Assembly: GCA_028819845.1 (NCBI GenBank)
Contig: JAPPKS010000024.1
Span: 1-33,879 of the forward strand
DNA length: 33,879 nt
From: Candidatus Poribacteria bacterium
GTDB lineage: Bacteria > Poribacteria > WGA-4E > PCPOR2b
Reading direction: 5' to 3'
Positions 1 through 21,276 of the stretch are shown piece by piece. Numbering within the stretch: the first letter of the stretch is position 1; the number at the start of each line of letters is the position of its first letter. The notes below the pieces were generated by a model. It was not told the DNA's origin, made no database searches, and saw nothing but the letters and a program-made list of their open reading frames with translations. The position numbers and the translations under genes are program-made.

Positions 1-109
1 CGTCCATCTCTTGTGGATACCGCGGCACCGGGTCGCCAAACTGACCCACTACCGTACTAGAAAAAACTAATACTAACAAAACTACTAACGCGCAGATACT
101 TCTTGTCAT
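1..109 (-). CDS. Rhs/YD-repeat secreted protein, third copy, 5' end only
   Basis: This is the first 36 codons of a third Rhs-family giant running off the left edge. Reading leftward from the ATG at 109 gives MTRSICALVVLLVL, then VFSSTVVGQFGDPVPR. This is almost the same Sec signal peptide and QFGDPVPRRPQE start as the two complete Rhs genes at 1145-6106 and 10402-15324. An AAGGAGAAGG ribosome site lies directly upstream (111-120). The gene starts 39 bases after the HEAT-repeat lipoprotein, so it probably belongs to the same transcript. Its C-terminal domain cannot be seen. Identity as an Rhs copy is seen directly from the match to its paralogs; function is inferred from the family. Confidence 0.85.
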   Translation of the reverse strand, partial: MTRSICALVVLLVLVFSSTVVGQFGDPVPRYPQEMD

Positions 110-148: not shown

Positions 149-1129
149 TCACTGATTTGCCGATTCCTCGACGGCTCTCAATGCTCCAGGAGTACCAATT
201 TCCTTTAATGCGCGAGCGGCGTGTTTACGTACATTATCCTCAGCTTCTGGATCATTCAACTCTTGAATAAAAGCGGGAACGGCGGCTTCCAAGGCTTCCA
301 ACGCTGCAGGCGTGCCAATTTCCTTTAATTCTGCAGCGGCGTGAGCACGTATCCAAGCGTATCGAGAATCCAATCGTTGAATATAATAGGCAACCACGGC
401 GTCCAACGCTTCAGGCGTGCCAATGTCCTTTAATGCGCGCTTGGCATAATGATGTGTAGCACCATCTGGAGGATCCGGATCATTCAACAATTGAATCAAA
501 ACGGGAACCAGAGACACATCACCCGCTTCGGCTAATTCCGCTAACTGCCGGGCTGCCCACCTTTCAATGAGTTCTTCTTTCACGGCGTGCATAGACGGGT
601 CGATTTTGAGAATTGCCAACCCTGCGTAGTTCGACCCGTCACGAAAAAGCTCTGTCAAGGCAGGTATGGCTTCGGCAGCGTCAGGCCCCATTTCCCCCAA
701 TGAAGTTATCGCCGTCTCGTGAACTCTAGGCCCTTCACTATCGAGGCCCCATACTTTTCCCGTATTTTCGTCCCGCAATGTCTCTATCAGTGCGGGGATG
801 GCTGAGACCGCAGGCGGTTCTATACTACCTAACACGTCTGCGGCAGCTGCTCGAACACGGCCATATTCATCGTTTAACAAAGCGTGTGTCAAGGCGGGAA
901 TGACTTTATCCCGCTCTTGTTGAGCCTTGCTCGCCAACAGGTCAATTGCCTTTTTTCGCAACTGCTCATGTCGATTGTTTTTGAGTTGAGTTATCAGGAA
1001 ATCTGCATCCTTATCCGACCAATCCGGATTGTAACACCCCATCGGGTAACACCCCATCACAGTTAAGCAACTGATGAGAAGCATTATCACATGGATGTGA
1101 GAAAAACAACGCCTAATCTTTGTGTCCAT
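149..1129 (-). CDS. HEAT-repeat lipoprotein, candidate immunity protein
   Basis: A 326-residue exported protein. It has a basic N-terminus, a hydrophobic stretch (about 12-26) and a lipobox LTVMGC with Cys at about 27, so it is probably membrane-anchored in the envelope. The rest is helical HEAT/PBS-lyase-type repeats: units around DxxxxVRxxAAxxLGxI near 85-120 and three near-identical C-terminal units with ALKxIGTPxAL near 230, 270 and 310. HEAT repeats are protein-binding scaffolds. The ATG at 1129 has GGGAGA six bases upstream. The gene begins 15 bases after the Rhs1 stop and ends 39 bases before the next Rhs start, the usual position of an immunity gene behind a polymorphic toxin. The HEAT fold and lipobox are seen; the immunity role is inference. 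It could instead be a general envelope scaffold. Confidence 0.8.
   Translation of the reverse strand: MDTKIRRCFSHIHVIMLLISCLTVMGCYPMGCYNPDWSDKDADFLITQLKNNRHEQLRKKAIDLLASKAQQERDKVIPALTHALLNDEYGRVRAAAADVLGSIEPPAVSAIPALIETLRDENTGKVWGLDSEGPRVHETAITSLGEMGPDAAEAIPALTELFRDGSNYAGLAILKIDPSMHAVKEELIERWAARQLAELAEAGDVSLVPVLIQLLNDPDPPDGATHHYAKRALKDIGTPEALDAVVAYYIQRLDSRYAWIRAHAAAELKEIGTPAALEALEAAVPAFIQELNDPEAEDNVRKHAARALKEIGTPGALRAVEESANQ
1031..1060. repeat. 15-bp tandem duplication over the lipobox
   Basis: Two adjacent 15-base units, GTAACACCCCATCGG and GTAACACCCCATCAC, make the lipoprotein gene read MGCYP-MGCYN. The modifiable cysteine and its context are therefore duplicated. The first copy sits right behind the hydrophobic segment and is the more likely lipidation site. 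Confidence 0.8.
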
Positions 1130-1144
1130 TGGTATTCTCCCATC

Positions 1145-4100
1145 TTAATTTGTTGGTTTTAATTTGTCGAGATTGAACGGTGTATAAAGAAGGTGCCGAT
1201 GGATGTGCGAATCATTTACGGCGCCCTCTGAAGGAGCTAAAAACTCGTAATTCGTAACCTTCTTAGGATCTGCGGTCGGTTTCGCATTGTCTAGAAAATC
1301 TTTAATCTGTGGCCCCAGCGGTTTGCTTGGATCGTAATCGTAAGCACCAAAGGTAGCGCCTGCTTTATTACTCGGCAAATCTTCATAACTAAATGCGCTG
1401 TTCGCGTAGTCGCCGCCCCTGAGCCATTGTGCAATTTCCACAGCTTCACCCATATGTATGGATACGAGATAAGCCATCGTTCGGTCGCCAGTATACTGCC
1501 GGTGTTTAGCAGCGACGGCTGCCGCAGCCATAAAATGTTTCATATCTATCCAACCGTATGTCTCTGTATGGATGTATCTGTTTTCGGTTCCCTCAGCATT
1601 CTTGAACTTACCGTATACTTCCTCGTTGTTAGGGTGATGACCATCAAGGCCGATTCGCGTTCCGAAATCTGATAACTCAGGAGGAACAACACTTTGAGGG
1701 AAAAAGTCGGCCATAAAACCATCAACGTTCCCTGCTTGATCTTGCACAGGCACTTTGCCGGTTGGATCCGTATACTTCATCGGATTATTATACGCATAGG
1801 CATACCAATTGATGCCGACGCCGGCGGGGTCTCGCTGTGTGAACCGTCCGATATACGGGTCATAGTACCGCCTTGAGCAGTAGTAGAGTTTAACATCGCT
1901 GTCATACTCCTTCCCCGTGAATTTGCGCGGAGTATCCCCCGTACCGACCTCAGAACGCACGGCACCGAACACATCGTATTCGTAGCGGGCAACCACGTTC
2001 TTGTGGTCGTCCGTTAAGATGATGTTACTGCCCAGCGCGTTCGCGTGGTGGTATTCATAGCGTCCCACCCGATTGTTCGCCAAAGCCGTTATCTCCGCGT
2101 CGCTTAGGGCGCGGTCGTAGATTGACACCTCGTCTAGGTAGCCGTGAAAACGAAGTGAACCGTAGTATCCCATCCACAATGCTTCGAGCGTCGCCGATAA
2201 CGATTCGGTCGCCGTTGTCGATTCTGACTCTTTCGCTCCGCCGATAAAGACACGAAGCTCGCTGCCGTCGTACCGTGCCGCCACATGCTTCCATTCGTCT
2301 TGCGGGATGGTTGTGCCGCTAGTGACAGTTTTAGTCGCTCCGTCAAACAGCAAGTCAAATTGGAGCGCCCCGCTGTCGGTAATCCGGAGTTCGTACCCGT
2401 TAGAAGCATTCGACTTCTTGACCAGATACCCATTGCTGGTCACTGAGGCGCGTTTCACCCAACAGCTTATGGTTAGCGCATTGCCCACAAGGTCTAAGGC
2501 ATCGCTGTCGAGCACTATCAGGGCGCCATCCTCCCCGTCAAACAGCAGACTGCCGCCATTCTCGTCGCTCCAAGTCAGCGAACCGTCACTGCAGTATCCG
2601 AGCGAGCCGTGGTTATACCCGTCAATATCGTGCGCGACGCTGCATTGTCCCTCATCAAAATGCCAATACGCCACGGCATCGTGTTTGCGGCGATAGACCA
2701 CCCCATCAGCGCCGTAGAGGTAACTGGCGGTGATTTTCTTGTTCGCGTCCAACTCCAGCACCGGCATCAAGCCGCCATAGAGGAAATAGCGCGTTCCATC
2801 GCTATCGGTCACTTTCACCCGTCTCCCGCCGCCATCGTAAGCGTAGCTTATCGTCTGTGTGACCGCGTTGTTCCGGGTTTTCTGTATCCGTTTCAACTGC
2901 GAGCCGAACCCGTAAGTGAATGCGTCGGAGTCCGTACCTTCGCTCCGTTGAGTCAGTTTTCCCTCGGCGTCGTAGGTGTAACTCATCGTCGAAAAATCGC
3001 TATCTTCCGGTACAAGCGATCGGTAGGTCAACTGGTTGCTGTCTGCCGCAATGGTGTAGGCGGTCGTACCGTCAATGCTGCTAATCTGCGCCAGCCGGTT
3101 GCCCGACGTGTCGTAGGTGTACATTACCATCTCGTCACCATAGTTGGCTTTCGTCAAGCGAGACAGGTTATCGTAACAGAAGATAAAGGTCTTGTCCGTA
3201 CCGCCGGCGCCGGTGTCGTCCCGTGCCAGTTCGGTCACATTCGACTTCACATCGTAACTGTAGTCGAGGGAGCTGAGCACTGTGGTAGCGTCTGTCTTGT
3301 ACTCTAACAGGTCTAATCGGTTGAGTGTGTCAAGCGTTCGATGCGTAGTGATGCCGTTCGGGTTTGTACCCGTCTTGAGCGCACCGATGTCGAAGTAGGC
3401 GTAACTCGCGCTCTTGTCAGTCAGCGCATCAGTCACGGACAGCAGCCGGCTCGCCTCGTCGTAGGTGTAGCTTGCATCGTACACCTTTGCGCCGCCTGCC
3501 GACGGTTCAATGAACATGCGCGTCCGCATCGAGGCGTCGTCGTACTCGTAAAAGGTCATGTAACCCAACAGACCGTTGTCCTGGGTAATCACGCGATTTA
3601 GTTGGTCGTGCGTGAAGGTGTAGGTATACGTCTCCGAGCCGTCGTTAGTGGTCTGGGTTAAAGTGTTGTTGGCGTTATCGTAGGTATAACCCACCGATTC
3701 GCCGGTCTTGTAACTCACTTGTGACACGCGGTTCAGATTATCGTAGGTGTTGCTCACGGCGGGATCGCTTTCGCTGCCGTCCTGGCTCGTCCACCCCTTT
3801 GTGACCTGACTCATAACATTGTAGCGCGTCTCTACCCAATCGCCGTCTGGAAGCGTCTGTTTCGTCACTCTGCCAATTAAATCGCGGGTGTAGCCGGTTA
3901 TCAAGCCGCGGGGGTCTTTGGTCTGACTGACATCGCCAAAAACGTCGTACATGGATTCGGTGGTGGCGTATGGGGTTGCCCAGTTACCGGCGTTGAAGCT
4001 GTGCGCTTTCACAACGCGGTTCATAGCGTCGTATTCCATCTTAGCCTGCGAAACCAGCGTGCCGGTCTGCCAGTTGGTTTGACGAACTTGTGTTTGAATG

Positions 4101-6106
4101 ACGTTGCCGTGCTTGTCGTATGTCGGGATGGTGTAGACATCATCGGCGACGCGGCGCGTGTATTTCAGCCTTCTATCCTGCCAGTAGGCGTATTCCGTGC
4201 GTCTGCCCTGCGCGTCAATGTCCGCCGTTTTCAACCCGCGATCCACATCCCATTCCGAACGGGTTTGGATAATGTGGTCTGCGCCGTCCACGGTGACTGT
4301 GGTCTTGGACCTGATTGGATAGGCGTTGTGCGTCGATTCGTAGACCGTCTCGACAACCTTCTCTTGCGCCGTACCCGGCATGAAGGTGGTCTTGATTTGG
4401 TTGCCGTAGGCGTCGTACTCGTGCGTGGTAACGATGTCGTGGTCAACGGCGTGGGGTTGAATGCCGGTATCGGCTTTGCTGCGCTGCTCGGTCAGATTGC
4501 CTTTGTCGTCGTAGCTGAACTCCGTCCTGTGCCCCATCGGGTCTATCTGCCAGATGGGGCGGTTGTATGTCGTCTCGTAGTCCGCTTCCCACTGGCGGAA
4601 AACATTGCGGCTGTCTGCGGGGTCTATCTGTTCCCACTTCGTGGCATTGCCCATCCGACTGTTGTGGGTCGGATTCTCGCCCTCATAGTAGAGCTTGTAC
4701 CGCCATTTTGGAGTGCTGTTGTACCTGACGCCGTAGCTGGCGATCATTACGTTTCTATTCGATGTGTAAGACCAATCCGACTGAGAACGTACCCACCCAG
4801 TCCCCGTGTTGGAATCGGCGACCCGCGCGATATTCCCATAGCCTTGATAATAGATGTAATAATACTTGTGGCGTGCCTGCTGCGTATTAGCCCTAGAAGG
4901 GTTTTCGGTGTATGCAGAACGGTTGGTCCTAGTGCTGTCCCCAGAACTGTAGGTGTACCTCCTCCCAGAGTATCGCCTATCAAATACGATGGCTCCCTCG
5001 GTTTCATCGGGTTCGGGAACATCTCTGACGCGAACATGCCTTACCTGATATTCAGTAATGCTCACTTCGGTTCGATACCCAAGCGGCGCCACAATCGCGG
5101 ACAGATAGCCGAAGTCGCGGAAGTTCTCAGTTTCTGAGCGGCTGTATTCGTATTGCGTGACCAACTCGATGCCGCGCGGATCGCCAGTCCCTAGCTGATA
5201 CACCACTGCGGATAGGTGATCGGAATAACCTAAACGCCTCCAAGTATGACCTTTTTGATAGCGAGTATAGCGATATTCGACCGTATTATAGACGCTGGTT
5301 AGCACTTGCGGCGTGCCCGCACCGAACTCAATCTTGGTGATATAACGCGGGAGCGCAACGTCGTCTACGCTGAAATCATAGGAAAACTTCAGTATCCGAC
5401 CCAGCGAATCTTCGACGGCGACCAGACGCGGATGGTAGGAACGTGAGGCTCGCGCTTCAGGCGCAGCCTCATAATGCAGTCTCACAATGTTGCCGTTCCG
5501 ATCCGTAATCTCCGTCAACACATACTTATCGGACGTGGCGATAGGTTTATCTAACTTGTAACGGATACCACTTCGGGTAGTGTAGATATAAGCCCAGTTC
5601 GTGCCGGACTGTTCTAACATCAAGCTGGCACGCACCCCAGATTCGGGGGTAAATATCGCACGACTCTCCCAACCGTCTGAATTGAGGTTAGGCCCGGAAG
5701 CTGTAAAGCCCTCTTTCGTTCCACTGCCGATAATTATGGTAACCTTAAAGGGACGCCGCTCCGAGACAATTTGACCGTCTTTCCACACCCGGACATAACC
5801 AGACCTCGACCCGCTAAACTGTACATCCCATTGATAGGAATTTCGCCATCTATATCCCATATAAGACGGCCCCGTTCTCGACGGGTATACCCCGCGAGAA
5901 TTATAATACCGCGTAAAGTTAATGCCTAAGCCGCGGCTTGAAACAGCCAAATCCGGCTCCGGAAAATACAACCCGCCGGTTAGCATATTGACTATCCCGT
6001 CCATCTCCTGCGGACGACGCGGCACCGGGTCTCCAAACTGGCTTTCGACCGTGCTAGAAAACATCAATACTAACAATACTACTAATGCGCAAATACTTCT
6101 TGTCAT
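1145..6106 (-). CDS. Rhs/YD-repeat polymorphic exoprotein with LamG domain (Rhs1)
   Basis: A 1653-residue exported Rhs protein. I place the start at the ATG at 6106, not the in-frame ATG at 6130. It has AAAAAGGAGAAG upstream and gives the same start (MTRSICALVVLLVL, cleavage near VES-QFGDP) as the paralogs. Order: signal peptide; an N-terminal DLAVSSRGLGINFTRYYNS domain like that of other Rhs proteins; many YD repeats (YDDKGNLTEQ, YDNLNRVSQV types) to about 1135; a LamG/concanavalin-like jelly roll at about 1139-1347 (YWHFDEG, ISCWVKR, WKHVAARYDGS); YD units; the RHS core ending GRFTQRDPAG...NWYAYAYNNP near 1418-1440. The last ~210 residues are unlike Rhs2 and carry WIDMKHF (1519-1525) and SYEDLPSNKAG (about 1571). 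I do not recognise that domain; by position it is the toxin module. Rhs shells are known to encapsulate such C-termini. A HEAT lipoprotein follows after 15 bases. Confidence 0.93.
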   Translation of the reverse strand: MTRSICALVVLLVLMFSSTVESQFGDPVPRRPQEMDGIVNMLTGGLYFPEPDLAVSSRGLGINFTRYYNSRGVYPSRTGPSYMGYRWRNSYQWDVQFSGSRSGYVRVWKDGQIVSERRPFKVTIIIGSGTKEGFTASGPNLNSDGWESRAIFTPESGVRASLMLEQSGTNWAYIYTTRSGIRYKLDKPIATSDKYVLTEITDRNGNIVRLHYEAAPEARASRSYHPRLVAVEDSLGRILKFSYDFSVDDVALPRYITKIEFGAGTPQVLTSVYNTVEYRYTRYQKGHTWRRLGYSDHLSAVVYQLGTGDPRGIELVTQYEYSRSETENFRDFGYLSAIVAPLGYRTEVSITEYQVRHVRVRDVPEPDETEGAIVFDRRYSGRRYTYSSGDSTRTNRSAYTENPSRANTQQARHKYYYIYYQGYGNIARVADSNTGTGWVRSQSDWSYTSNRNVMIASYGVRYNSTPKWRYKLYYEGENPTHNSRMGNATKWEQIDPADSRNVFRQWEADYETTYNRPIWQIDPMGHRTEFSYDDKGNLTEQRSKADTGIQPHAVDHDIVTTHEYDAYGNQIKTTFMPGTAQEKVVETVYESTHNAYPIRSKTTVTVDGADHIIQTRSEWDVDRGLKTADIDAQGRRTEYAYWQDRRLKYTRRVADDVYTIPTYDKHGNVIQTQVRQTNWQTGTLVSQAKMEYDAMNRVVKAHSFNAGNWATPYATTESMYDVFGDVSQTKDPRGLITGYTRDLIGRVTKQTLPDGDWVETRYNVMSQVTKGWTSQDGSESDPAVSNTYDNLNRVSQVSYKTGESVGYTYDNANNTLTQTTNDGSETYTYTFTHDQLNRVITQDNGLLGYMTFYEYDDASMRTRMFIEPSAGGAKVYDASYTYDEASRLLSVTDALTDKSASYAYFDIGALKTGTNPNGITTHRTLDTLNRLDLLEYKTDATTVLSSLDYSYDVKSNVTELARDDTGAGGTDKTFIFCYDNLSRLTKANYGDEMVMYTYDTSGNRLAQISSIDGTTAYTIAADSNQLTYRSLVPEDSDFSTMSYTYDAEGKLTQRSEGTDSDAFTYGFGSQLKRIQKTRNNAVTQTISYAYDGGGRRVKVTDSDGTRYFLYGGLMPVLELDANKKITASYLYGADGVVYRRKHDAVAYWHFDEGQCSVAHDIDGYNHGSLGYCSDGSLTWSDENGGSLLFDGEDGALIVLDSDALDLVGNALTISCWVKRASVTSNGYLVKKSNASNGYELRITDSGALQFDLLFDGATKTVTSGTTIPQDEWKHVAARYDGSELRVFIGGAKESESTTATESLSATLEALWMGYYGSLRFHGYLDEVSIYDRALSDAEITALANNRVGRYEYHHANALGSNIILTDDHKNVVARYEYDVFGAVRSEVGTGDTPRKFTGKEYDSDVKLYYCSRRYYDPYIGRFTQRDPAGVGINWYAYAYNNPMKYTDPTGKVPVQDQAGNVDGFMADFFPQSVVPPELSDFGTRIGLDGHHPNNEEVYGKFKNAEGTENRYIHTETYGWIDMKHFMAAAAVAAKHRQYTGDRTMAYLVSIHMGEAVEIAQWLRGGDYANSAFSYEDLPSNKAGATFGAYDYDPSKPLGPQIKDFLDNAKPTADPKKVTNYEFLAPSEGAVNDSHIHRHLLYTPFNLDKLKPTN
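1790..6106. repeat. Long imperfect direct repeat, copy 1 (Rhs shell)
   Basis: The Rhs1 coding DNA from the start to the RHS core is a diverged direct repeat of 10985-15324. Long identical nucleotide stretches occur in the YD-repeat, LamG and core parts. Similarity is weaker in the N-terminal third and stops abruptly after the core. The repeat is a natural substrate for recombination that would swap C-terminal cassettes. Confidence 0.85.
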
Positions 6107-6146
6107 GCTTCTTCTCCTTTTTGATGTCATTTGTTCGATTGCAGGT

Positions 6147-9341: not shown

Positions 9342-10382
9342 TTAGTAACGAATCTTTGTCAGACCTTGATTTATAGGTGTCCATAGATCATGTGCACTGG
9401 AATCTGTTCGTCTGCGAAAGATTCCTGCTCTACCCTCTTCTGCGAATGGGTTACCAAATATGCCGGCATACAGGTATTTTTCCGATACCGCTAACGCGGT
9501 GATGGGTAAATCGCGTAATCCCCAATCTTGCCATGAGACACCGTCCGGTGCGTGAAAGACACCATTACTCGAAGTCCCGGCATAGAGTCCGTTAGTGCCC
9601 GGTTCCGCTATCAACGATACAATACTGGAGCCGGATAGCCCCACATGCGTCCAAGAATCGTCGTTTGCCAAGCGAAAAACACCGTCCCGCGTGCCGGCAT
9701 AGACGGTTGTTCCGGAGACCGCTAACGACGTGACATTTTGTTCCGCCAAGTCGGTGTTTACGGGCGTCCATGAATCACCACTGTCAAGCGAGCGAAAGAC
9801 GCCTTCGCCCTCTGTGCCAGCATAGAGTGTTGCATCAGATATGGCTAATGCACTAATCGGCGGGCCGAGCAAAGCTGTGATTAGTCCATCTTTCTGCCAC
9901 TCGCGGTTGATATAATTCCATGTATGCCCGCCATTAACTGAACAGTATAGCCTGCCATTACTCATACCCGCGTAAATGTTATCATCGGATGCCACCAATG
10001 ACACTGGTGATGCTCCCCCCCAGCGTTTTGTCGTGGAGACGGGAGTGTCGGTCTCGGAGATTCTCGCCCATGTGTCGTTATCTTTGTCTAAGCGATAGAT
10101 TCTCGTGGCGCCAGCATAGATGGTTGTTCCGGACACGGCTAACGACTCAACAAAAAATATGCTTCCGATACGCTGCCACGAACGGCTTCCAGCGTCCAAA
10201 CGGAAAACACCGTCGAAATCAGCGGCGGCATAGACGGAATTTCCCGACACTGCAAAATCCTTAATCCAAAACACATCGTATGGCGTATTGTTGGGCGTAT
10301 TGTTCGGCTCCTCCTGATTTATATCCTCACTACAGCAGACAGAGCACAATGAAATGATTAATAAAAGGATATGCCTCATCAT
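9342..10382 (-). CDS. Beta-propeller (BNR/sortilin-like) lipoprotein
   Basis: A 346-residue exported protein starting MMRHILLLIISLCSVCCSED. A cysteine pair follows the hydrophobic stretch, so lipidation is likely although the lipobox is not canonical. The rest is six to seven propeller blades with the repeated pattern LAVSGTTVYAGT...GVFRxxxxxxSWxxV, typical of BNR or VPS10/sortilin-like propellers. AGAGG lies nine bases upstream. The gene starts 19 bases after the stop of Rhs2, the classic immunity position for the Rhs2 C-terminal domain. The propeller is seen directly. Ligand binding is the family's usual role; inhibition of the Rhs2 zincin is inference. Confidence 0.8.
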   Translation of the reverse strand: MMRHILLLIISLCSVCCSEDINQEEPNNTPNNTPYDVFWIKDFAVSGNSVYAAADFDGVFRLDAGSRSWQRIGSIFFVESLAVSGTTIYAGATRIYRLDKDNDTWARISETDTPVSTTKRWGGASPVSLVASDDNIYAGMSNGRLYCSVNGGHTWNYINREWQKDGLITALLGPPISALAISDATLYAGTEGEGVFRSLDSGDSWTPVNTDLAEQNVTSLAVSGTTVYAGTRDGVFRLANDDSWTHVGLSGSSIVSLIAEPGTNGLYAGTSSNGVFHAPDGVSWQDWGLRDLPITALAVSEKYLYAGIFGNPFAEEGRAGIFRRRTDSSAHDLWTPINQGLTKIRY

Positions 10383-10401: not shown

Positions 10402-13400
10402 TTAAAGTGGATTGGGGTAGTTTGGCAAAGCAACTGGCAGTAGGGCTGGATTGCGGATTTCGGCAAGCACGCGAGTATAGTGTACATTAACCCAAATGCC
10501 CAAAAACGAGAGATCATTCCATGCGGAGGATTGGGTAATTTCCCCGTCGCGTTTAAGTTTTTTAATTTCGAGGTTATGGTAAGCCAGCCAGTTCCAACCA
10601 GAAATCGCGCTTGTAATCGACCCACTGGCAATCCCCCAACTCACAAAAAACCAGTCTTGCACTGCTTGTGCATGTTCCTCGTTTGTGAGTTCTAAGGTGT
10701 CTAATTGTTGGGTTGTATAATCGTAATCCCCATAACTGCGTTCTCGGTGACGGTTTGTCCATCTTTGCCAGATGTGGGTTGCTTCGTGAATAAAAACCGA
10801 TAACCAGCCGAGGCTTTCCTCCGGGTCATAATCGGCATGTAATTTAATGTCAGTGTCATTTTCAACTCGACCGCCTCCCTCCCATGAGGGAGGTTGAATC
10901 TGGACATCTATAATGTCAATCAGGAAATTTCCCACTTGTTCGCCAAACGTGAATATCAAGGCTGACGCCTCAGTACTATTCACAGGGCGGAGACCGAACG
11001 GGTCAATAAACCTAAGCGGATTATTGTAGGCATACGCATACCAGTTGATGCCGTCTCCGGCGGGGTCACGCTGTGTAAATCTGCCGATATACGGGTCATA
11101 GTATCGCGCTGCGTAGTAGTAGAGTTTAACATCGCTCTCATACTCCTTGCCAGTGAATTTTCGCGGCGTGTCGCCTGTGCCAACCTCAGAACGCACAGCG
11201 CCAAATACATCGTACTCGTAGCGGGCAAGCACGTTCTTGTTATCGTCCGTTAAGACGATGTTACTGCCCAGTGCGTTCGCGTGGTGGTATTCATAGCGTC
11301 CCACCCGATTGTTCGCCAAATCCGTTATCTCAGCGTCGCTCAGGGCGCGGTCATAGATTGACACGTCGTCTAGGTAGCCGTGTAAACGAAGTGAACCGAA
11401 ATATCCTATCCATAACGCCTCGTGCGTCGCCACTAGCGATTCGGTCGCCATCGTCGATTCCGACTCTTTAGTTCCGTCAATGAAGATGTTCAAATCACTG
11501 CCGTCGTACCGAGCCGCCACATGCTTCCATTCGTCCCGCGGGATGGTTGTGCCGCTAGTGACAGTCTTAGTCGTGCCATCAAACAGCAAGTCAAATTGCA
11601 GCGCCCCACTGTCGGTAATCCGGAGTTCGTACCCGTTAGTGGGATTCGACTTCTTGACCAAATATGCGCCGTCCGTTGATGAGCGTTTCACCCAGCAGCT
11701 TATGGTGAGCGTATTGCCCACAAGGTCTAAGGCGTCACTGTCAAGCACTATCACGGCATCGTTCGTCCCATCAAAGAGGAGACTGCCACCGTTCTCGGTA
11801 TTCCACATCTGTGATTCGTAGGCGTTGCAATCGCCAAGCGAGCCGTGATGATAACCGTCAATATCGTGGGCAACGCTGCCACTTCCCTTATCGAAATGCC
11901 AGTACGCCACGGCATCGTGTTTACGGCGGTAGACCACTCCATCGGCGCCGTAGAGGTAACTGGCGGTGATTTTCTTGTTTGCGTCCAACTCCAGCACCGG
12001 CATCAAGCCGTCGTAGAGAAAATAGCGCGTCCCGTGACTATCTGCCACTCTCACACGCTGCCCGCCGCCGTCGTAAGCATAGCTTATCGTCTGCGTAACT
12101 GCGTTGTTCCGGGTTTTCTGTATCTGCTTCAACTGCGAGCCGAACCCGTAAGTGAATGCGTCGGAATCCGTGCCTTCGTTCCGTTGGGTCAGGTTGCCCT
12201 CGGCGTCGTAGGTGTAACTCATCGTCGAAAAGTCGCTATCTTCCGGAACAAGCGACCGGTAGGTCAACTGGTTGCTGTCAGCTGCAATCGTGTAGGCGGT
12301 CGTGCCGTCGATGCTGCTTATTTGTGTTAGCCGGTTGTTCGACTTGTCGTAGGTGTAGTCAACCTGCCCGTCTCCGTAGTCGGCTTTGGTCAAGCGAGAG
12401 AGGTTGTCGTAACAATACATGAAGGTTTTGCTCGTACCGCCGGCGCCGGTGTCGTTCCGCACCAGTTCGGTCACGTTCGACTTCACATCGTAACTGTAGT
12501 CGAGCGAACTCAGCACCGTGGCCTCATCTTTCTTGTAGTTCAGCGTGTCCAAACGGTTGAGCGTGTCGAGCGTTCGATGTGCGGTGATGCCGTTCGGGTT
12601 GGTAGCCGTCTTAATGGCGCCGATGTCGAAGTAGTCATAGCTGGCGCTCTTGACAGTCAGCGCATCCGTCACGGAGAGCAGCCGGTTCGCCTCGTCGTAG
12701 GTATAACTCGCATCGTACACCTTTCCGCCACCTGCGGACGGTTGGATGTACATGCGCGTCCGCATTGAGGCGTCGTCGTATTCGTAGAAGGTCTTGTAAC
12801 CCAACAGCGAATTATCTTGGGTCACCACACGGTTGAGCTGGTCGTGGGTGTAGGTATAGGCATACGTCTCCGAGCCGTCGTTGGTCGTCTGGGTCAGCAC
12901 GTTGTTGCCGCGGTCGTAGGTGTAGCCCACGGATTCACCGGTCTTGTAACTGACTTGCGAGACGCGGTTATAAATATCGTAGGTGTTGCTGACGGCGGGG
13001 TCAGTTTCGGTGCCGGTTTGACTCGTCCACGCCTTCGTAACCTGATCCAGCACATTGTAGCGCGTCTCCACCCAATCGCCGTCCGAAAGCGTCTGCTTCG
13101 TCACCCTGCCCAAAAAATCGCGGGTGTAGTTGGTTATCAAGTTGCGGGCGTCTTTCGTCTGCGAGACATCGCCAATCCCGTCGTAGACCGTTGTGGTCGT
13201 GGCGTATGGCGTCGTCCATTCATCGCCGTTGAAACTGTGCGTTTTAACGACGCGGTTCATGGTGTCGTATTCCATCTTAGCCTGCGCAATCAGCGTACCG
13301 GTCTGCCAGTTGGTTTGACGGACTTGCGTCTGGACGACGTTGCCGTTCTTGTCGTATGTCGGTACCGTGTAGAGGTCATCGGCGGCGCGGCGGGTGTATT

Positions 13401-15324
13401 TCAGCTTGCCGTCCTGCCAGTAAGCGTATTCCGTGCGTCTGCCTTGCGCGTCGATATCCGCAGTTTTCAAACCGAGATTCATATCCCATTCCGAATGGGT
13501 TTGGATAATATGCTCTGCGCTGTCCACGGTGACGGTGGTCTTAAACGTGATTGGATAGGCGTGGTGCGTCGCGTCATAGACAGTCTCGACTACCTTCTCT
13601 TGCGTTGTCCCCGGCATGAACGTCGTTTTGGTGCGGTTGCCGTAGGTGTCGTATTCGTGCGTGGTAACAATGTCACGGTCAACTGCGTGGGGTTGAATGC
13701 CGGTATCGGCTTTGCTGCGCTGCTCCGTCAGATTGCCTTTGTCGTCGTAGCTAAACTCCGTCCTGCGGCCCATCGCATCTATCTGCCAGATGGGGCGGTT
13801 ATACGTGGTCTCGTAGTCCGCCCGCCACTTGCGGAACACATTGCGGCTGTCTGTGGGGTCAAACTGTTCCCACTTTGTGGCATTGCCCATCCGACGGTTA
13901 TGGTCTGGATTCTCACCTTCATAGTAGATTCTGTACCGCCATTTCGGAGTGCTGCTGCCGTACACGCCGTAGATGGCTTGAATAACGTTTCTATTTGAGT
14001 AAGACCATTGCGACCGAGAACGCTCCCACCCGGTCCCCGTGTTGGAGTTGCCGCGCTGTGTGATACTGCCGGAACTCACCGTATAGCTGTAATAATACTT
14101 TGTCCGATGCCGCCGCTCTAAGTCGTTGGCGGGCAAATGGTTGTACGTGTGCGCATTATTGTAGCCGGTGCCGCCCCCGTATCGACGCTCGTATACGATG
14201 GCGCCCAGCGTATCACCCGCGGCGGGAACACCCCGGACGCGCACTTTACTGCCTTTGCCGTAATATGTGTCAATTTCGGTGCGGTAGCCCAGCGCATCCA
14301 CAATCGCCTTAATATAGGCAAATTCGCGGTAGTTATTTGAACTCGACAGGTTGTATTCGTAAGTTAGCGACACGGTGCTACCTCGCGGATCGCCCGTCCC
14401 TAGCTCATAAGACACGCCGGTAAGGCAATTATAATACGTATACGAATTGTAGCTGTTCCTGCGGCTATGGCGGGTATAGCTGTAATTGACTGTCTGATAG
14501 ACAGTGGTTAGCGTCTGCGGCGTGCCCGCGCCATACTGAATCTTAGTAACAAAACGCGGGTAATCACGCGGGTTGACAGCGCCTCCTACGCTGTATCCAT
14601 AGAAAAACTTTAGTATTCGACCCAGCGTATCTTCAACCGCGACCAATCGGGGATAACGACCAGTGTTGTGCGGCGTTTCAGGCGACGCTTCGTAATGCAA
14701 CTTCACACTATTGCCGTGCGGATCCGAAATCTCCGTCAACACATACTTCGTGCTGTTGGCAACCTTCTCAAACTTGTGGCGAATACCGCCGTGGGCGGTG
14801 TAGATATACGCCCATTCCGTGCCGGACTGCTCAAACTTCAACTTGGCACGCACGCCAACTTTCGGGGTAAATGTCGCCCGACTCTCCCAACCCGCTGCAT
14901 TGAGGTTTGAACCGGACGCCTCAAAACTTTGTTTCGTTCCGCTGCCCGTAACTATCGTGACCGTATAGGGGCTCCGTACACGAGTGTATGAGTTAGTCTC
15001 TGAGTTCCATGTCTGGGCATAACCAGACCTCGACCCGCTATACCGGACATCCCATTGATAGGAGTGCCGCCATTTATGCCCCAACTCAGCCGTATCATAC
15101 GGCTTCACCCCTTGAGAATTATAAGTCCGCGTAAACGCAAGCCCCAACCCGCGCCCGGAAACAGCCAAATCCGTATGCGAAAAATAGACGCCGCGGGTCA
15201 GCATATTCACGATGCCGTCTATCTCCTGCGGGCGACGCGGTACGGGGTCGCCAAACTGTGCGACGACCGTATTAGAAAAAACCCATAACAACAAAATTAC
15301 TAACGTAAAAATACTTCTTGCCAT
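10402..15324 (-). CDS. Rhs/YD-repeat polymorphic exoprotein with zincin C-terminus (Rhs2)
   Basis: A 1640-residue exported Rhs protein. The ATG at 15324 has AAAGGAGGA six bases upstream. Signal peptide MARSIFTLVILLLW, cleavage near VVA-QFGDP. The shell parallels Rhs1: N-terminal DLAVSGRGLGLAFTRTYNS, YD repeats to about 1135, a LamG-like jelly roll at about 1137-1338, and the RHS core GRFTQRDPAG...NNPLRFIDPFG near 1413-1446. The ~195-residue C-terminus is different. It carries FIHEATHIWQ with HEATH at 1513-1517, followed about 40 residues later by NEEHAQAVQDW, whose glutamate could be the third zinc ligand. This HExxH...E plan matches Rhs-linked metallopeptidase toxins (HEMTHVWQ...EQQA type). 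It probably acts as a protease in the envelope or outside the cell. A propeller lipoprotein follows after 19 bases. Confidence 0.93.
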   Translation of the reverse strand: MARSIFTLVILLLWVFSNTVVAQFGDPVPRRPQEIDGIVNMLTRGVYFSHTDLAVSGRGLGLAFTRTYNSQGVKPYDTAELGHKWRHSYQWDVRYSGSRSGYAQTWNSETNSYTRVRSPYTVTIVTGSGTKQSFEASGSNLNAAGWESRATFTPKVGVRAKLKFEQSGTEWAYIYTAHGGIRHKFEKVANSTKYVLTEISDPHGNSVKLHYEASPETPHNTGRYPRLVAVEDTLGRILKFFYGYSVGGAVNPRDYPRFVTKIQYGAGTPQTLTTVYQTVNYSYTRHSRRNSYNSYTYYNCLTGVSYELGTGDPRGSTVSLTYEYNLSSSNNYREFAYIKAIVDALGYRTEIDTYYGKGSKVRVRGVPAAGDTLGAIVYERRYGGGTGYNNAHTYNHLPANDLERRHRTKYYYSYTVSSGSITQRGNSNTGTGWERSRSQWSYSNRNVIQAIYGVYGSSTPKWRYRIYYEGENPDHNRRMGNATKWEQFDPTDSRNVFRKWRADYETTYNRPIWQIDAMGRRTEFSYDDKGNLTEQRSKADTGIQPHAVDRDIVTTHEYDTYGNRTKTTFMPGTTQEKVVETVYDATHHAYPITFKTTVTVDSAEHIIQTHSEWDMNLGLKTADIDAQGRRTEYAYWQDGKLKYTRRAADDLYTVPTYDKNGNVVQTQVRQTNWQTGTLIAQAKMEYDTMNRVVKTHSFNGDEWTTPYATTTTVYDGIGDVSQTKDARNLITNYTRDFLGRVTKQTLSDGDWVETRYNVLDQVTKAWTSQTGTETDPAVSNTYDIYNRVSQVSYKTGESVGYTYDRGNNVLTQTTNDGSETYAYTYTHDQLNRVVTQDNSLLGYKTFYEYDDASMRTRMYIQPSAGGGKVYDASYTYDEANRLLSVTDALTVKSASYDYFDIGAIKTATNPNGITAHRTLDTLNRLDTLNYKKDEATVLSSLDYSYDVKSNVTELVRNDTGAGGTSKTFMYCYDNLSRLTKADYGDGQVDYTYDKSNNRLTQISSIDGTTAYTIAADSNQLTYRSLVPEDSDFSTMSYTYDAEGNLTQRNEGTDSDAFTYGFGSQLKQIQKTRNNAVTQTISYAYDGGGQRVRVADSHGTRYFLYDGLMPVLELDANKKITASYLYGADGVVYRRKHDAVAYWHFDKGSGSVAHDIDGYHHGSLGDCNAYESQMWNTENGGSLLFDGTNDAVIVLDSDALDLVGNTLTISCWVKRSSTDGAYLVKKSNPTNGYELRITDSGALQFDLLFDGTTKTVTSGTTIPRDEWKHVAARYDGSDLNIFIDGTKESESTMATESLVATHEALWIGYFGSLRLHGYLDDVSIYDRALSDAEITDLANNRVGRYEYHHANALGSNIVLTDDNKNVLARYEYDVFGAVRSEVGTGDTPRKFTGKEYESDVKLYYYAARYYDPYIGRFTQRDPAGDGINWYAYAYNNPLRFIDPFGLRPVNSTEASALIFTFGEQVGNFLIDIIDVQIQPPSWEGGGRVENDTDIKLHADYDPEESLGWLSVFIHEATHIWQRWTNRHRERSYGDYDYTTQQLDTLELTNEEHAQAVQDWFFVSWGIASGSITSAISGWNWLAYHNLEIKKLKRDGEITQSSAWNDLSFLGIWVNVHYTRVLAEIRNPALLPVALPNYPNPL
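10985..15324. repeat. Long imperfect direct repeat, copy 2 (Rhs shell)
   Basis: Partner of 1790-6106. The match ends within a few codons after YAYNNP of the RHS core, where the two genes switch to unrelated C-terminal domains. Confidence 0.85.
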
Positions 15325-15419: not shown

Positions 15420-16541
15420 TTATTCCGGAATCGGGGGACTTCCGCCGCCGTTTTCGCCGTTGCCGCCGTTCGTGGTTCCGACCGGTTCTATCAAGTCTGA
15501 ACCGCGATCCTCAAGTATTAACAGCAACGCATCCGCCTGTTCGGTATCGCCGCCGGACTCCGAGGTCTGCACCGCGTTCCACAACGCCAGGTCTATTAAC
15601 CCGTCGAATCGGGTTTGGGCAGCCGTCAATGCCTCGGCACGCTGTCCCTCGTCGTCCGGATGCAATGCGGCAAACACGCCGGAAAACACCGTATCTTCAC
15701 GCACCACGCCGGCGGCTTGTGCGTATAACTCAGAAGCGCGTAACTGCGCCGCCGGTACGTAGAAGCCGTCCTCCTTAATCCACTTCGCCTCAGTCATTAA
15801 CTCTTGCACCTGCATAACATTGGCTTCAATCGCCAACGGGTGCGTCGGGTAGTCTAACAAAAACTGCGCATAAGAGACCGCGTTAGCCGCGGTAAAGGCG
15901 GTGCGTGTCAGTTCCAAAGCGTCAAACCACGCCTCTCCGTCGTTGTGGTTGCAGACACACCACACCCTAAGCTGCGCCGCATCTGCGGGCGGCAACGCAC
16001 TCACAGTCACAGTTGACCAGTCGTTGTCGCCTACCGGCAGCATGCGCGAATCGGACGAGGTGAGTACATCTCCATCTTGGTTGAGCCAAGCTATTGCAAG
16101 ATAGACCTCGCCGTTGTTTGCCACTGTAGCAACTTTACCGGTCAGCGTGTACCACTGAAATCCTGCGCCCTCAATCGCAAGCGCGTCGCTCGACCATCTG
16201 CCGTAGAAATAGCGGGTAAAACCCACAGAGATGCTGCGTTCTCCCAACAAGGCAATTTCGCTGTCCCAATTGTAGTGATGACCAACATCAGGGGCTAACG
16301 GCGTCCAGTTGTCTGGGGCATCGGTGCCCGTCTCGAATGAAGCGTTGAGAAGGTCTACGGCGGCACTCTCCGGTATCGGATTCACTGAATCTTCTTGACC
16401 GGGGTTGACATTTCCTCCTCCACTTGTACCAGTGTTGCCGCCGCCGTTATCCTCTCCGCCGGGAATGCCTTGCGCGTGGAGTGACAAGGACGAAAAAATT
16501 AGGGTCAAAGGTAAAATGATTGTCAAGAAACGAAATAGCAT
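15420..16541 (-). CDS. Secreted protein with jelly-roll (CBM-like) domain
   Basis: A 373-residue exported protein. The start is the ATG at 16541 (MLFRFLTIILPLTLIFSSLSLHAQG, cleavage after HAQ or HA), with GGAGG nine bases upstream; the longer frame to 16622 is not needed. A Gly/Asn-rich linker precedes a module LLNASFETGTDAPDNWTP...WFDALELTRT (about 62-205) with the FE-x-n-W and closing D-x-L-x-L pattern of carbohydrate-binding-module-like jelly rolls. The second half is helical (YAQFLLDYPTHPLAIEANVMQVQELM) and may be a TPR-like or coiled region. The tail is Gly-rich and ends SPPIPE. It lies 47 bases after the pilOP-like gene and before Rhs2, so it may be a substrate or accessory of the secretin apparatus (inference). 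Confidence 0.8.
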   Translation of the reverse strand: MLFRFLTIILPLTLIFSSLSLHAQGIPGGEDNGGGNTGTSGGGNVNPGQEDSVNPIPESAAVDLLNASFETGTDAPDNWTPLAPDVGHHYNWDSEIALLGERSISVGFTRYFYGRWSSDALAIEGAGFQWYTLTGKVATVANNGEVYLAIAWLNQDGDVLTSSDSRMLPVGDNDWSTVTVSALPPADAAQLRVWCVCNHNDGEAWFDALELTRTAFTAANAVSYAQFLLDYPTHPLAIEANVMQVQELMTEAKWIKEDGFYVPAAQLRASELYAQAAGVVREDTVFSGVFAALHPDDEGQRAEALTAAQTRFDGLIDLALWNAVQTSESGGDTEQADALLLILEDRGSDLIEPVGTTNGGNGENGGGSPPIPE

Positions 16542-16588
16542 GGTTAAACCTCCAAAATCGTGTTTAGTGGTTAGTGAAATAATTGTTC

Positions 16589-17512
16589 CTATTTTAACGT
16601 TGCGCCGTTGTCCGGCGACCACAATCTCAATTCATGCCGTTGCGTGCCGCGTTTCACCAATACACGCTGCGGGTGAATTGAGAGGATAGCTGTGCCGGCA
16701 AATTCTTCGCCGACAGATGCCGACAGCCGTCTGCCGCCGTGATTCAATATGGCTATCGGGTTTACCTCGTTCCATAAGATGCCGGTCAATGTGGGTAAAG
16801 GCGTTTCAGTAACAGGGCTTTCGGCTGTGTTCGATTGCGGTGCAGTCGCGTCAAACGCGAACGGATTGCGTTTGACGGAATATCTCTCTATCGCTGCCAT
16901 CTCAATCAGTGGCGAGTGACTAGTGGAGAGTGGAGAGTTAAGGAATTGCTCTCCACTCATCACTCTCCATTCTCCACTGTCTCTTTTGTGCATCGGTGAG
17001 ATCGTCAAACTCATCCGCAACGGGGTCAGTTGCCGTTTGCGTTGATAGAGCCGTACCTCCTCAATTCGCACCTTCGGGATTATCCGTTCTACGACCGACA
17101 GAAGGGTTAAAAAGCCCGCGTAGTTGCCTGAGACGGTCAATTGCCGCGGAAGCGCGCCATATTCGCCGCGATGCCATTCGCGCAATTCCTCGACGCCGAC
17201 AAGCGAGGCGGAAGGCTCCGAATCTTCTGCCAGCGACAACTTATCCGAAACTGTCCCAATCGCCGGTAGAAGCTGATCCGGATTCTTCCAAATCAACTCG
17301 GTCTCTAATGCGCGCAACTTTGCTTCGGCATCGGCGACTTGCCCACGCCTCTTTTCGTAAGCAGTTTTAATATGCGCCGTCTCGACTTGCGCCAAGTCTC
17401 GCTCCGTCTCGACGGCTCGCTGCCATCGGAAAAACTGAATCACCAGCGTGACAGACAGGATAACGACTGCTAAAAAGAGGGCACTTGACCGTACCATCAT
17501 TCGTCCGCACAT
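16589..17512 (-). CDS. PilO-PilP-like fusion, inner-membrane assembly protein
   Basis: A 307-residue protein. One N-terminal membrane segment (about 8-27, SSALFLAVVILSVTLVIQFF) is followed by a coiled coil (about 30-75) and a PilO-like ferredoxin domain (LPRQLTVSGNYAGFLTLLSVVERIIPKVRI, about 120-175). The end (about 230-307, PTLTGILWNEVNPIAILNHGG...VGEEFAGTAILSIHPQRVLVKRG) has the pattern of the PilP/GspC homology domain that contacts secretin N0. In type IV pili and T2SS these parts are separate proteins forming a periplasmic bridge to the secretin. About 25 residues between the halves (near 178-201) come from an inserted palindromic repeat. The gene starts two bases after the pilMN-like stop, with AAGGAG upstream. 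Fold assignment is from pattern; the fusion is seen. Confidence 0.75.
   Translation of the reverse strand: MCGRMMVRSSALFLAVVILSVTLVIQFFRWQRAVETERDLAQVETAHIKTAYEKRRGQVADAEAKLRALETELIWKNPDQLLPAIGTVSDKLSLAEDSEPSASLVGVEELREWHRGEYGALPRQLTVSGNYAGFLTLLSVVERIIPKVRIEEVRLYQRKRQLTPLRMSLTISPMHKRDSGEWRVMSGEQFLNSPLSTSHSPLIEMAAIERYSVKRNPFAFDATAPQSNTAESPVTETPLPTLTGILWNEVNPIAILNHGGRRLSASVGEEFAGTAILSIHPQRVLVKRGTQRHELRLWSPDNGATLK
16922..16978. repeat. Palindromic repeat inserted in frame in the pilOP-like gene
   Basis: The arms AGTGGAGAGTGGAGAGT (16922-16938) and ACTCTCCATTCTCCACT (16962-16978) are 17-base inverted repeats with one mismatch. A further CTCTCCACT unit lies between them. The reading frame stays open through it and yields SGEWRVMSGEQ...NSPLSTSHSPL, low-complexity peptide unlike the flanking PilO and PilP parts. 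Confidence 0.85.
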
Positions 17513-17514
17513 TA

Positions 17515-18921
17515 TTATTCTCCTTCAACAGAGGTCAGAGCCAGTGTAAACTCCAACCTCCGATTGCCGTCGATAAGCGTCGGTTCAGTCTTGACCTGGC
17601 GGACAGATGCGAATTGCGATTGTGTGACCAGGGCAGCCCGATACGCATTTATCTCCGCTTGGCTTGGCGCAACTCCCACTACCAACAGCTCTTTGCGAGC
17701 ATCAAAATCGGCGCGAGCTTTCGACGATTTCGGCTGCGAAACCGTTTTGATTTCCGTGAGCCGTACCGACGCCGGGATTGGATTGGCTAACTGAACCAAC
17801 CGCTCAGCCAACGGCGGAAATTGACGCTTCCCCCACGCCAGTTGCGCAAGCGACTTCTGATGAGCGGCATGTCGCTCACCCAACGATTCGGTTTCAGCCT
17901 GTAATCGTTTCATCGCCGACCGGTCTAAACGCATCGTGTGGATATTTGCATGCTTTGATTGAATCCAATCGTAAAGCTTTACATTAGCACCGGCTAGCAT
18001 CAGCATCGCTGCGATTGGAATCGCTTGCATCAATCGACGCTTTCGCCTTAGCTTCTGCTGCAAAGTTTTCGCGGCAAGCACCGGCTCGAGTAGGTTCAAC
18101 CGAATCGAATCCGCCCGTCCGGATTCTTGCATCGGTTTCGATAGTGCAGCCGCCCAATCGAAACTAGATTCCGTAACTTCAACCCCAAACTGTTCCGCCA
18201 GCTGATTGGCGGTTAATACGGATGAGCCGCGAAACAGGACAATCCGTGTCAGAGGCGCATCCCTCGGATTCGGACAGTTGACAAGGCTTTGCCGAATCGT
18301 CCGCAACAGTTGGCTGGCATCTCCGAAAAAAAAGCTGCGTCCTAAGCAGAGGTCGCCCGAATCGACAACAGCCAAATCACACATAGCGCCGTCTATATGC
18401 ACGCCGCACATTCGATTCGAACCATACCAGAGCAGTTGATTCGCTACCGTCACCGATTGCGGGCTAAGATAGATTAAATCAACTCCGGCAAGCTGCTCGA
18501 AGAATGACACGAGCCTGCCCTTCCGCATCCAAGCGATTAAGAGCGTCTTCGGGCTCAACAGTTGAAAATCGTAAGCTGCTCCACCAAGCGCGATAGGGAT
18601 GTAGGTCTCATTCTCCAGTAGAGTTTTAACCGCAAGGTTTTGCATCTGTGGATCAGCTTGCGGGATTGCATTCGGCAACTCAATCCATTTCAGCAGTATC
18701 TCGCTGCTCGACAGTGAAATTAATACCGGTTTTGACTTTGCGTCCGCAAGCAACTCACGCACCACGTCCGCAAGGTCGGGGTAAGATAACGGGTCACTTA
18801 TTGCGTCGTCCGCGGTCAATTGCCGCGAATCCGACTGAACACACGTCCAACGTCCACTGCCCCACACCATATCGGATTTTCGAATTGTCCTATCAGTTAT
18901 CTGTAAACAGATGCGATTCAT
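17515..18921 (-). CDS. PilM-PilN (GspL-like) fusion, inner-membrane assembly protein
   Basis: A 468-residue protein. Residues 1-265 form an actin-like PilM/GspL cytoplasmic domain (VLISLSSSEILLKWIELPN near 67-86, YDFQLLSP, VHIDGAMCDLAVVDSGDLCLGRSF near 173-197). At about 272 comes IRLNLLEP, matching the INLLP-type motif by which PilN binds PilM. Then follow a basic stretch, one hydrophobic segment (about 297-318), a coiled coil (about 325-365) and a PilN-like periplasmic ferredoxin domain with SVRLTEIKTV and LLVVGVAPSQAEINAYRAAL. In type IV pili PilM and PilN are separate; the fusion resembles GspL of T2SS. The start overlaps the secretin gene by 29 bases, so expression is coupled. No ATPase or pilin gene is adjacent. 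Confidence 0.8.
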   Translation of the reverse strand: MNRICLQITDRTIRKSDMVWGSGRWTCVQSDSRQLTADDAISDPLSYPDLADVVRELLADAKSKPVLISLSSSEILLKWIELPNAIPQADPQMQNLAVKTLLENETYIPIALGGAAYDFQLLSPKTLLIAWMRKGRLVSFFEQLAGVDLIYLSPQSVTVANQLLWYGSNRMCGVHIDGAMCDLAVVDSGDLCLGRSFFFGDASQLLRTIRQSLVNCPNPRDAPLTRIVLFRGSSVLTANQLAEQFGVEVTESSFDWAAALSKPMQESGRADSIRLNLLEPVLAAKTLQQKLRRKRRLMQAIPIAAMLMLAGANVKLYDWIQSKHANIHTMRLDRSAMKRLQAETESLGERHAAHQKSLAQLAWGKRQFPPLAERLVQLANPIPASVRLTEIKTVSQPKSSKARADFDARKELLVVGVAPSQAEINAYRAALVTQSQFASVRQVKTEPTLIDGNRRLEFTLALTSVEGE

Positions 18922-21256: not shown

Positions 21257-21276
21257 CGCTCCAATCTTTGCATCAT
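21253..21276 (-). CDS. Seven-codon leader peptide coupled to the secretin start
   Basis: A very short frame, MMQRLER, follows a strong AGGAGG (21282-21287). Its TGA overlaps the secretin ATG (ATGA). The best ribosome site upstream of the secretin thus serves this mini-ORF, implying translational coupling or a leader. Alternatively GGAG close to the ATG at 21256 is used directly. Seen in sequence; function inferred. Confidence 0.45.
   Translation of the reverse strand: MMQRLER

What the first reader, a model, noticed from the sequence alone, without database searches (positions are those of the whole stretch)
1145..1790. Unassigned C-terminal domain of Rhs1 with WIDMKHF and SYEDLPSN motifs
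About 210 residues after the RHS core match no family I can name. They carry conserved-looking motifs WIDMKHFMAAAAVA, EAVEIAQWLRGG and SAFSYEDLPSNKAGATFG, and a C-terminal HIHRH. By position this is a toxin or effector domain, possibly a new enzyme class.
Basis: inference. Interest (0 to 1): 0.6.

Follow-up and report, generated by a model that had tools for sequence, protein, structure and literature searches.

The report
Lipid-attacking Rhs toxin tip (Lipocone)
The unassigned tail of this large secreted bacterial protein is most likely a toxin of the recently described Lipocone superfamily, which probably cuts the head groups off membrane lipids, with the gene next to it probably protecting the maker; relatives of the same toxin turn up in several bacterial phyla and in tiny archaea.

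Summary
In detail: aa 1458-1661 of the Rhs ORF (window 1148-1756, minus strand) form a separate domain behind a sharp Rhs-core boundary, and its main motifs recur in unrelated genomes. It is not a new enzyme class. It is a CapCone-type member of the Lipocone superfamily (Burroughs et al. 2025; VanZ, YfiM, DUF4056, TelC, Wnt). A nine-sequence profile built without any DUF4056 protein recovers DUF4056 proteins (12 of 12 distant hits in Pseudomonadota), and profile-profile comparison gives 97% probability. The four predicted active-site positions (His, Glu, Gln, Asp) are invariant in 9 of 9. Best explanation: a polymorphic toxin tip on a Sec-exported Rhs protein that attacks phosphate-linked lipid head groups outside the cytoplasm; the HEAT-repeat lipoprotein 15 bases downstream is the likely immunity protein (the pair recurs on a second contig). 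Activity, substrate, delivery and immunity are inferred, not shown. New, as far as the papers I read go: an Rhs-borne CapCone tip in Poribacteria, the HEAT lipoprotein pairing, and relatives on DUF4157 carriers and on mini-Rhs proteins of Woesearchaeota. The C-terminal HIHRH is not conserved.

The parts
1145..6130 (-). Rhs protein, 1661 aa: signal-peptide-like N-terminus, DUF6531, RHS repeats, inserted Laminin_G_3 domain, Rhs-associated core, C-terminal toxin tip
   Evidence: signal peptide by eye
6041..6106 (-). signal-peptide-like stretch (MTRSICALVVLLVLMFSSTVESQ)
   Evidence: by eye, no predictor run
2090..2497 (-). Laminin_G_3 (concanavalin-like) domain inserted in the Rhs protein, aa 1212-1347
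   Evidence: E=1.4e-26
1757..1978 (-). Rhs-associated core domain (TIGR03696), ends at NNPMKYTDPTG
1148..1756 (-). C-terminal toxin tip, CapCone-type Lipocone domain, 203 aa
1544..1576 (-). beta-hairpin in front of helix H2 (tip residues 61-71), the 'clasp'
   Evidence: model; same element in the model
1490..1543 (-). helix H2 (tip residues 72-89) with predicted catalytic His74 (1535-1537); Asp71 three residues before it, Gly68 six before it
1421..1483 (-). helix H3 (tip residues 92-112) with Glu107 (1436-1438) and Gln110 (1427-1429)
1337..1399 (-). S120-x-F122-S-x-x-D126 motif and helix H4 (126-140): Asp126 (1379-1381), Ser129-Asn130, Phe136-Gly137
1193..1207 (-).
149..1129 (-). HEAT-repeat lipoprotein (lipobox-like VMGC, by eye), start codon 15 bases after the Rhs stop, GGGAG before it; probable immunity protein

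Best explanation
The tail is a CapCone-type Lipocone domain serving as the toxin tip of a Sec-exported Rhs polymorphic toxin of a Poribacteria genome. Proposed mechanism: the Rhs shell carries the tip out of the cell; once released at or in a neighbouring cell, the cone of helices takes up a lipid tail and the His74/Glu107/Asp126 site (with Gln110) directs water or another nucleophile at the phosphate link of the lipid head group, a phospholipid or a polyprenyl-linked wall precursor as for TelC. The HEAT-repeat lipoprotein encoded directly downstream is anchored on the outside of the producer's membrane and blocks the tip. Shown by computation: the domain, its homology to DUF4056, the conserved residues, the Rhs boundary and the paired gene. 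Inferred: enzymatic activity, lipid substrate, place of action, release, immunity.
For: Weak but convergent hits, all to Lipocone families: DUF4056 (E=0.0085), DUF2279 (0.03), YfiM (0.0016) for the window tip, VanZ (0.024) for a homolog. Decisive: a 9-row profile without any DUF4056 protein, run on 398 Pseudomonadota genomes, hit 13, and the 12 besides its own member all carry Pfam DUF4056 at E<=2.5e-92; hhalign of the two alignments gives 97.3%, E=2.7e-11, over the His, Glu/Gln and Asp blocks. Motif rules that the Lipocone paper gives for the clade hold: His, Glu, Asp and E+3 Gln in 9 of 9; D at H-3 in 9 of 9; G at H-6 in 8 of 9; S at D-6 in 9 of 9; SN at D+3/+4 in 9 of 9. Models show beta-hairpin, then H2, H3, H4. 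Toxin logic: the two Rhs cores of the window are 75-92% identical over aa 501-1400, the tails about 22%; GC 0.46 in the tip against 0.54 in the core. Only two close copies of the HEAT lipoprotein exist in the genome and both follow a copy of this tip, 15 and 14 bases after its stop. A Poribacteria relative is followed by a BamE-like lipoprotein (E=4.6e-4, below Pfam's cut-off), the immunity type the paper reports for CapCone toxins.
Against: No PDB or viral fold match; models only moderate (pLDDT 70 and 78). The Pfam hits of the single sequence are below cut-off. In the Poribacteria relative L078, G at H-6 is R and S at D-3 is D. Members found only through the DNA pattern (6 of 9) have the FxxxD..SN..G..FG block by construction, so its conservation among them is not independent. 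HEAT proteins are common in this genome (85 matched stretches). I know of no experiment on any CapCone toxin (recalled; the paper says TelC is the only characterised Lipocone toxin).
Confidence: 0.75

Rival explanations
1. The tip is a Lipocone fold that only binds lipids, or perturbs the membrane, without catalysis, as the animal Wnt members are thought to be inactive.
For: The superfamily contains inactive members; no activity data for this tip.
Against: All four predicted active-site positions are invariant in 9 of 9 members from several phyla.
Confidence: 0.12
2. It is an effector against eukaryotes or a host-interaction factor, not an antibacterial toxin.
For: Two relatives sit on DUF4157-like carriers next to eCIS-like genes (by eye), and eCIS toxins include anti-eukaryotic ones (passages of PMC8213781).
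Against: A co-moving downstream gene of lipoprotein type points to self-protection, thus to a target that the producer shares; 7 of 9 readable loci have a membrane-anchored or lipoprotein-like gene downstream (by eye).
Confidence: 0.15
3. The HEAT lipoprotein is an unrelated neighbour and immunity lies elsewhere or is absent.
For: HEAT repeats are frequent in the genome (85 stretches) and lie near other Rhs tails too.
Against: The pair occurs twice with near-identical spacing while the next best HEAT match is at E=2e-6; a second toxin type (HELSH tail) has its own distinct HEAT subtype in both its copies, 73% identical.
Confidence: 0.25
4. The tail is a structural or processing part of the Rhs shell and not a toxin.
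For: None found.
Against: The second Rhs of the window has the same shell and an unrelated tail; the same domain occurs without an Rhs shell, on DUF4157-like proteins and as standalone secreted-looking proteins.
Confidence: 0.03

Closest known systems
CapCone families (CapCone-1, CapCone-2, CapCone-DUF4056) of the Lipocone superfamily, PMC12419801
   Same: Active-site His/Glu/Asp, G at H-6, SxxSxxD, SN after the Asp, beta-hairpin before H2; CapCone-1 and -2 are reported as polymorphic toxin tips.
   Different: Carrier (Sec-exported Rhs), phylum and HEAT lipoprotein partner are not in the main-text parts I read; whether it belongs to CapCone-1, CapCone-2 or a further family could not be decided because the supplementary alignments were not available.
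Pfam DUF4056 (PF13265)
   Same: Homologous over about 100 residues with the same motif blocks (GGFIDxAH, HEIAQW, SAFSPEDLYSN).
   Different: Below the Pfam cut-off (15.9 against 23.6 bits); DUF4056 proteins here are 353-469 aa frames with long inserts and an RPCCAFG region absent from the tip.
TelC toxin (Streptococcus intermedius), as described in PMC12419801
   Same: Lipocone toxin tip acting on a lipid-linked precursor outside the cytoplasm; a template for the mechanism.
   Different: Carried by type VII secretion; its extra conserved Asp six residues after the H4 Asp is Ala132 here.
Imm-HEAT immunity proteins (Zhang et al. 2012, PMC3482391)
   Same: HEAT-repeat protein next to an Rhs toxin.
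   Different: Reported there with Tox-REase-7 and Ntox34, not with Lipocone tips; here with a lipobox-like signal.
DUF4157 eCIS-associated toxins (PMC8213781, PMC11297309)
   Same: Relatives L100 and L090 carry this domain behind a DUF4157-like HExxH region.
   Different: The window protein has no such region; in the passages I read none of EAT14-17 is this domain.

Membership tests
Lipocone superfamily | His on H2, Glu on H3, Asp on H4 lining the pocket | tested here: met
   His74, Glu107, Asp126 invariant in 9 of 9; rule from PMC12419801 section 7. That they line a pocket was not measured.
Lipocone superfamily | fourth polar position near the end of H3, often Asp or Glu | tested here: met
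   Gln110 in 9 of 9, polar but not Asp/Glu
Lipocone superfamily | glycine near the C-terminus of H4 | tested here: met
   Gly137 invariant; fixed by the scan pattern in 6 of 9, free in the window, C23 and L078, which was first found as G002 without it
Lipocone superfamily | four-helix cone with pocket | tested here: inconclusive
   helices in the right order in two moderate models; no coordinates, no structural match
Lipocone superfamily | profile homology to a named family | tested here: met
   12 of 12 distant hits are DUF4056; hhalign 97.3%, E=2.7e-11
CapCone group | Gly six positions before the H2 His | tested here: met
   8 of 9, window included; R in L078
CapCone group | S/GxxSxx before the H4 Asp | tested here: met
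   S at D-6 in 9 of 9; at D-3 S in 5, T in 3, D in 1 of 9; window SAFSYED
CapCone group | beta-hairpin clasp, with an added strand, before H2 | tested here: met
   hairpin 61-64/68-71, 42-45/49-52; the added strand was not resolved
CapCone group | cap over the active site | not testable with these tools
   no coordinates returned
CapCone-1 or CapCone-2 in particular | family-specific alignment | not testable with these tools
   supplementary data of the paper not available
Pfam DUF4056 | score above 23.6 bits | tested here: not met
   15.9 bits
TelC | Asp six positions after the H4 Asp | tested here: not met
   Ala132 in the window, Ala or Val in the other rows; in 6 of 9 the pattern allowed only Ala or Val there
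Rhs polymorphic toxin | conserved shell and core with exchangeable tail | tested here: met
   75-92% against about 22% identity in the two window Rhs proteins; six Rhs-core matches in the genome with several tails
Rhs polymorphic toxin | adjacent cognate immunity gene | tested here: inconclusive
   paired HEAT lipoprotein in 2 of 2 copies; function untested
Rhs polymorphic toxin | growth inhibition of a sensitive cell | not testable with these tools
   needs a bench test
Imm-HEAT | HEAT repeats next to a toxin tip | tested here: met
   HEAT_2 E=6.6e-31, 15 bases after the toxin stop

The most novel reading that the evidence does not exclude
One CapCone toxin tip is passed between four kinds of carrier: full Sec-exported Rhs shells, minimal signal-peptide plus Rhs-tail proteins used by Woesearchaeota and Poribacteria, DUF4157 cargo of eCIS-like loci in an actinomycete and a gammaproteobacterium, and standalone secreted proteins in the planctomycete phylum. 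HEAT-repeat lipoproteins form a new immunity class for Lipocone toxins, and tiny DPANN archaea use a lipid-head-group toxin against partners or rivals.
Probability: 0.4. Interest if true: 0.6.

Novelty: new member of a known kind. Interest (0 to 1): 0.42.

Why it matters
It removes one 'unknown' Rhs tail by placing it in a superfamily with a testable active site, and gives a compact toxin plus immunity pair on which the so far untested CapCone biochemistry could be measured. The archaeal and DUF4157-borne relatives would extend Lipocone conflict roles to carriers that the main text of the founding paper does not discuss.

Tried and rejected
Leads that gave nothing: phmmer and profile search of PDB sequences (no credible hit); tblastn in plasmids and phages (none, or one chance match at E=0.6); seven viral-contig scans with the family or its motifs (no true relative; the 6 loci that matched a pattern, L021, L022, L026-L029, scored at noise); PADLOC (none); Foldseek and VIA-align on both models (nothing above background; human serum amyloid A, a Lipocone member, appears at rank 12 with Z 2.9, 70 residues, rmsd 3.6, tied with unrelated rows and not used as evidence). 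DUF4056 in the own phylum: 0 of 84, which the tool says does not show absence.

Of the other 73, 16 were looked at by eye: short-chain dehydrogenases with a chance motif, short or unrelated frames, a VanZ-like protein (L081), a fragment that may be Lipocone-like (L086) and a ClaspCone-like protein (L073, later E=1e-9); the remaining 57 were not inspected one by one. Rejected: HIHRH as a catalytic motif (not conserved). Rejected: direct membership in Pfam DUF4056 or TelC (membership table). Papers: PMC12419801 abstract and sections 5, 7, 12, 29, 30 read in full, other passages by search; PMC3482391, PMC8213781, PMC11297309, PMC11669294 passages only; the rest only as search listings. Statements that something is not in print rest on these searches and on the main text alone; supplements were not available.

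Full report
WHAT IS THERE. The finding is the C-terminus of a 1661-aa Rhs ORF, window 1145..6130 minus strand. Pfam and NCBIfam find DUF6531, RHS repeats, an inserted Laminin_G_3 domain and the Rhs-associated core, which ends at aa 1458 with NNPMKYTDPTG. The remaining 203 aa (window 1148-1756) match no model above its cut-off. The window is contig 15 of a 4.6-Mb genome. Its phylum is Poribacteria: the 'same phylum' genome G002 holds a 13,280-base contig with the same match as WJIO01000241.1, Candidatus Poribacteria bacterium Bin_402, of the same length.

THE TAIL IS AN EXCHANGEABLE TIP. The second Rhs of the window (10402..15324) is 75-92% identical to the first over aa 501-1400 and then drops to about 22% after the core. 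GC falls from 0.54 in both cores to 0.46-0.47 in both tails. The genome has six Rhs-core matches: four in long Rhs ORFs and two in short proteins with a signal-peptide-like start, a short core remnant and a tail. One of the short ones (C23) carries a copy of our tip but has an in-frame stop between core remnant and tip.

FAMILY. Weak hits were nearly all to one superfamily: DUF4056, DUF2279, YfiM and, for a homolog, VanZ (a few unrelated families appear once each at E 0.03-0.09). These were unified in 2025 as the Lipocone superfamily (PMC12419801; abstract and sections 5, 7, 12, 29, 30 read). I then looked for relatives. In the phylum 2 of 84 genomes have the tip. With the window and C23 they make a 9-row alignment in which D71, H74, G103, E107, Q110, S120, F122, D126, S129, N130, F136 and G137 (tip numbering) never vary. 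The block around D126 is partly fixed by the search pattern; H74, D71, E107, Q110 and S120 were not in the pattern. Leave-one-out profiles, also without near twins, score every member far above 1000 shuffles: 31.4 bits against 4.6 in the weakest case (L078) and 78.7-118.1 bits against at most 14.3 in the other eight.

THE DECISIVE TEST. The 9-row profile contains no DUF4056 protein. In 398 Pseudomonadota genomes it hit 13; one is its own member, and all 12 others carry Pfam DUF4056 at E<=2.5e-92. Profile-profile comparison with five of these gives 97.3% probability and E=2.7e-11, aligned over GWIDMKH, EIAQW and SAFSYEDLPSN. The rules printed for the CapCone group fit: G six before the His (8 of 9), S/GxxSxx before the Asp (S at D-6 in 9 of 9; at D-3 S in 5, T in 3, D in 1 of 9), small residue plus N after it (9 of 9), beta-hairpin before H2 (models, pLDDT 70 and 78). 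TelC's extra Asp is missing, and the Pfam DUF4056 cut-off is not reached, so the claim is 'CapCone-type Lipocone', not 'DUF4056' and not 'TelC'. No solved structure matched, so the cone itself rests on homology.

WHAT IT PROBABLY DOES. The paper predicts that active Lipocones remove or swap phosphate-linked lipid head groups, with TelC cutting lipid II as one of two characterised enzymes, and lists CapCone-1 and -2 among polymorphic toxin tips with lipoprotein or membrane immunity proteins. The same logic is seen here. The gene after our tip is a HEAT-repeat protein with a lipobox-like start, 15 bases downstream. Only one other close copy exists in the genome, and it follows the C23 copy of the tip at 14 bases; the HEAT pair is 68-72% identical, the tips 40-51%. 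A different tail with a HELSH motif also occurs twice (C1, C11) and each time precedes another HEAT subtype, 73% identical. HEAT proteins are common in the genome (85 stretches), so adjacency alone would prove little; the co-moving subtypes are the argument. Imm-HEAT is a known class, reported with other toxins (passages of PMC3482391). L078 is followed by a BamE-like lipoprotein (E=4.6e-4, under the cut-off), the immunity type named in the paper, and then by a second cassette with the same linker and another end. Of the nine loci whose downstream gene I could read (window, C23, L078, L104, L098, L045, L165, L100, L090), seven have a lipoprotein-like or membrane-anchored product by eye and two, the DUF4157 carriers, do not; L083 ends at its contig edge, and L166-L170 showed no clear candidate. 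No topology predictor was run.

SPREAD. Besides Poribacteria: 1 of 194 genomes of the archaeal phylum of L098, 13 of 398 Pseudomonadota (12 of them DUF4056), 1 of 396 in the phylum of L090 and 7 of 392 in that of L045. In each of these counts one match is the member that brought the genome in. The seven are L045, a second Rhs tail (L165), two standalone secreted-looking proteins (L166, L167) and three that look ClaspCone-like by eye (L168-L170). Two relatives sit behind DUF4157-like regions (named by eye from the HExxH stretch, not by a model) next to genes that look like eCIS parts by eye; DUF4157 is a known marker of such toxins (passages of PMC8213781). The words 'contractile' and 'DUF4157' do not occur in the main text of the Lipocone paper. 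A DUF4056 ORF has been named as a candidate T6SS effector in Salmonella (one passage of PMC11669294).

VERDICT. It is a new member of a known kind, with an unusual set of carriers and a probable HEAT lipoprotein partner. Catalysis, substrate, delivery across the outer membrane and immunity remain untested.

Noticed in passing
window 10402-11000 (-): The second Rhs protein has a different tail with a HEATHIW motif, weakly like Peptidase_M91 (E=0.014), followed by a beta-propeller-like lipoprotein at 9342-10382.
   Followed up: partly
window 2090-2497 (-) and the same place in the second Rhs: A Laminin_G_3 domain is inserted in the Rhs protein before the Rhs-associated core.
   Followed up: no
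window 1-109 (-): Start of a third rhs gene, cut by the contig end (signal peptide like that of the other two, by eye).
   Followed up: no
L098 72-704 and L083 2-436 (Woesearchaeota): Short proteins with a signal-peptide-like start, a short Rhs-core remnant and this toxin domain, in two archaeal MAGs; the gene after that of L098 encodes a 4-TM protein by eye.
   Followed up: partly
L016 and L019 (own genome C1 and C11): A HELSH-type metalloprotease-like tail occurs on a full Rhs and on a short form, each followed by its own HEAT subtype.
   Followed up: partly
L078 140-1006 (-): Orphan cassette with the same linker as the toxin gene before it but an unrelated end.
   Followed up: no
L166, L167 (phylum of L045): Standalone secreted-looking proteins with a Cys-rich region and the DMRHF / EVAQW / NEDLxSN motifs.
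   Followed up: no
window 15420-21400 (-): Cluster that looks by eye like type IV pilus or type II secretion genes, with a secretin.
   Followed up: no
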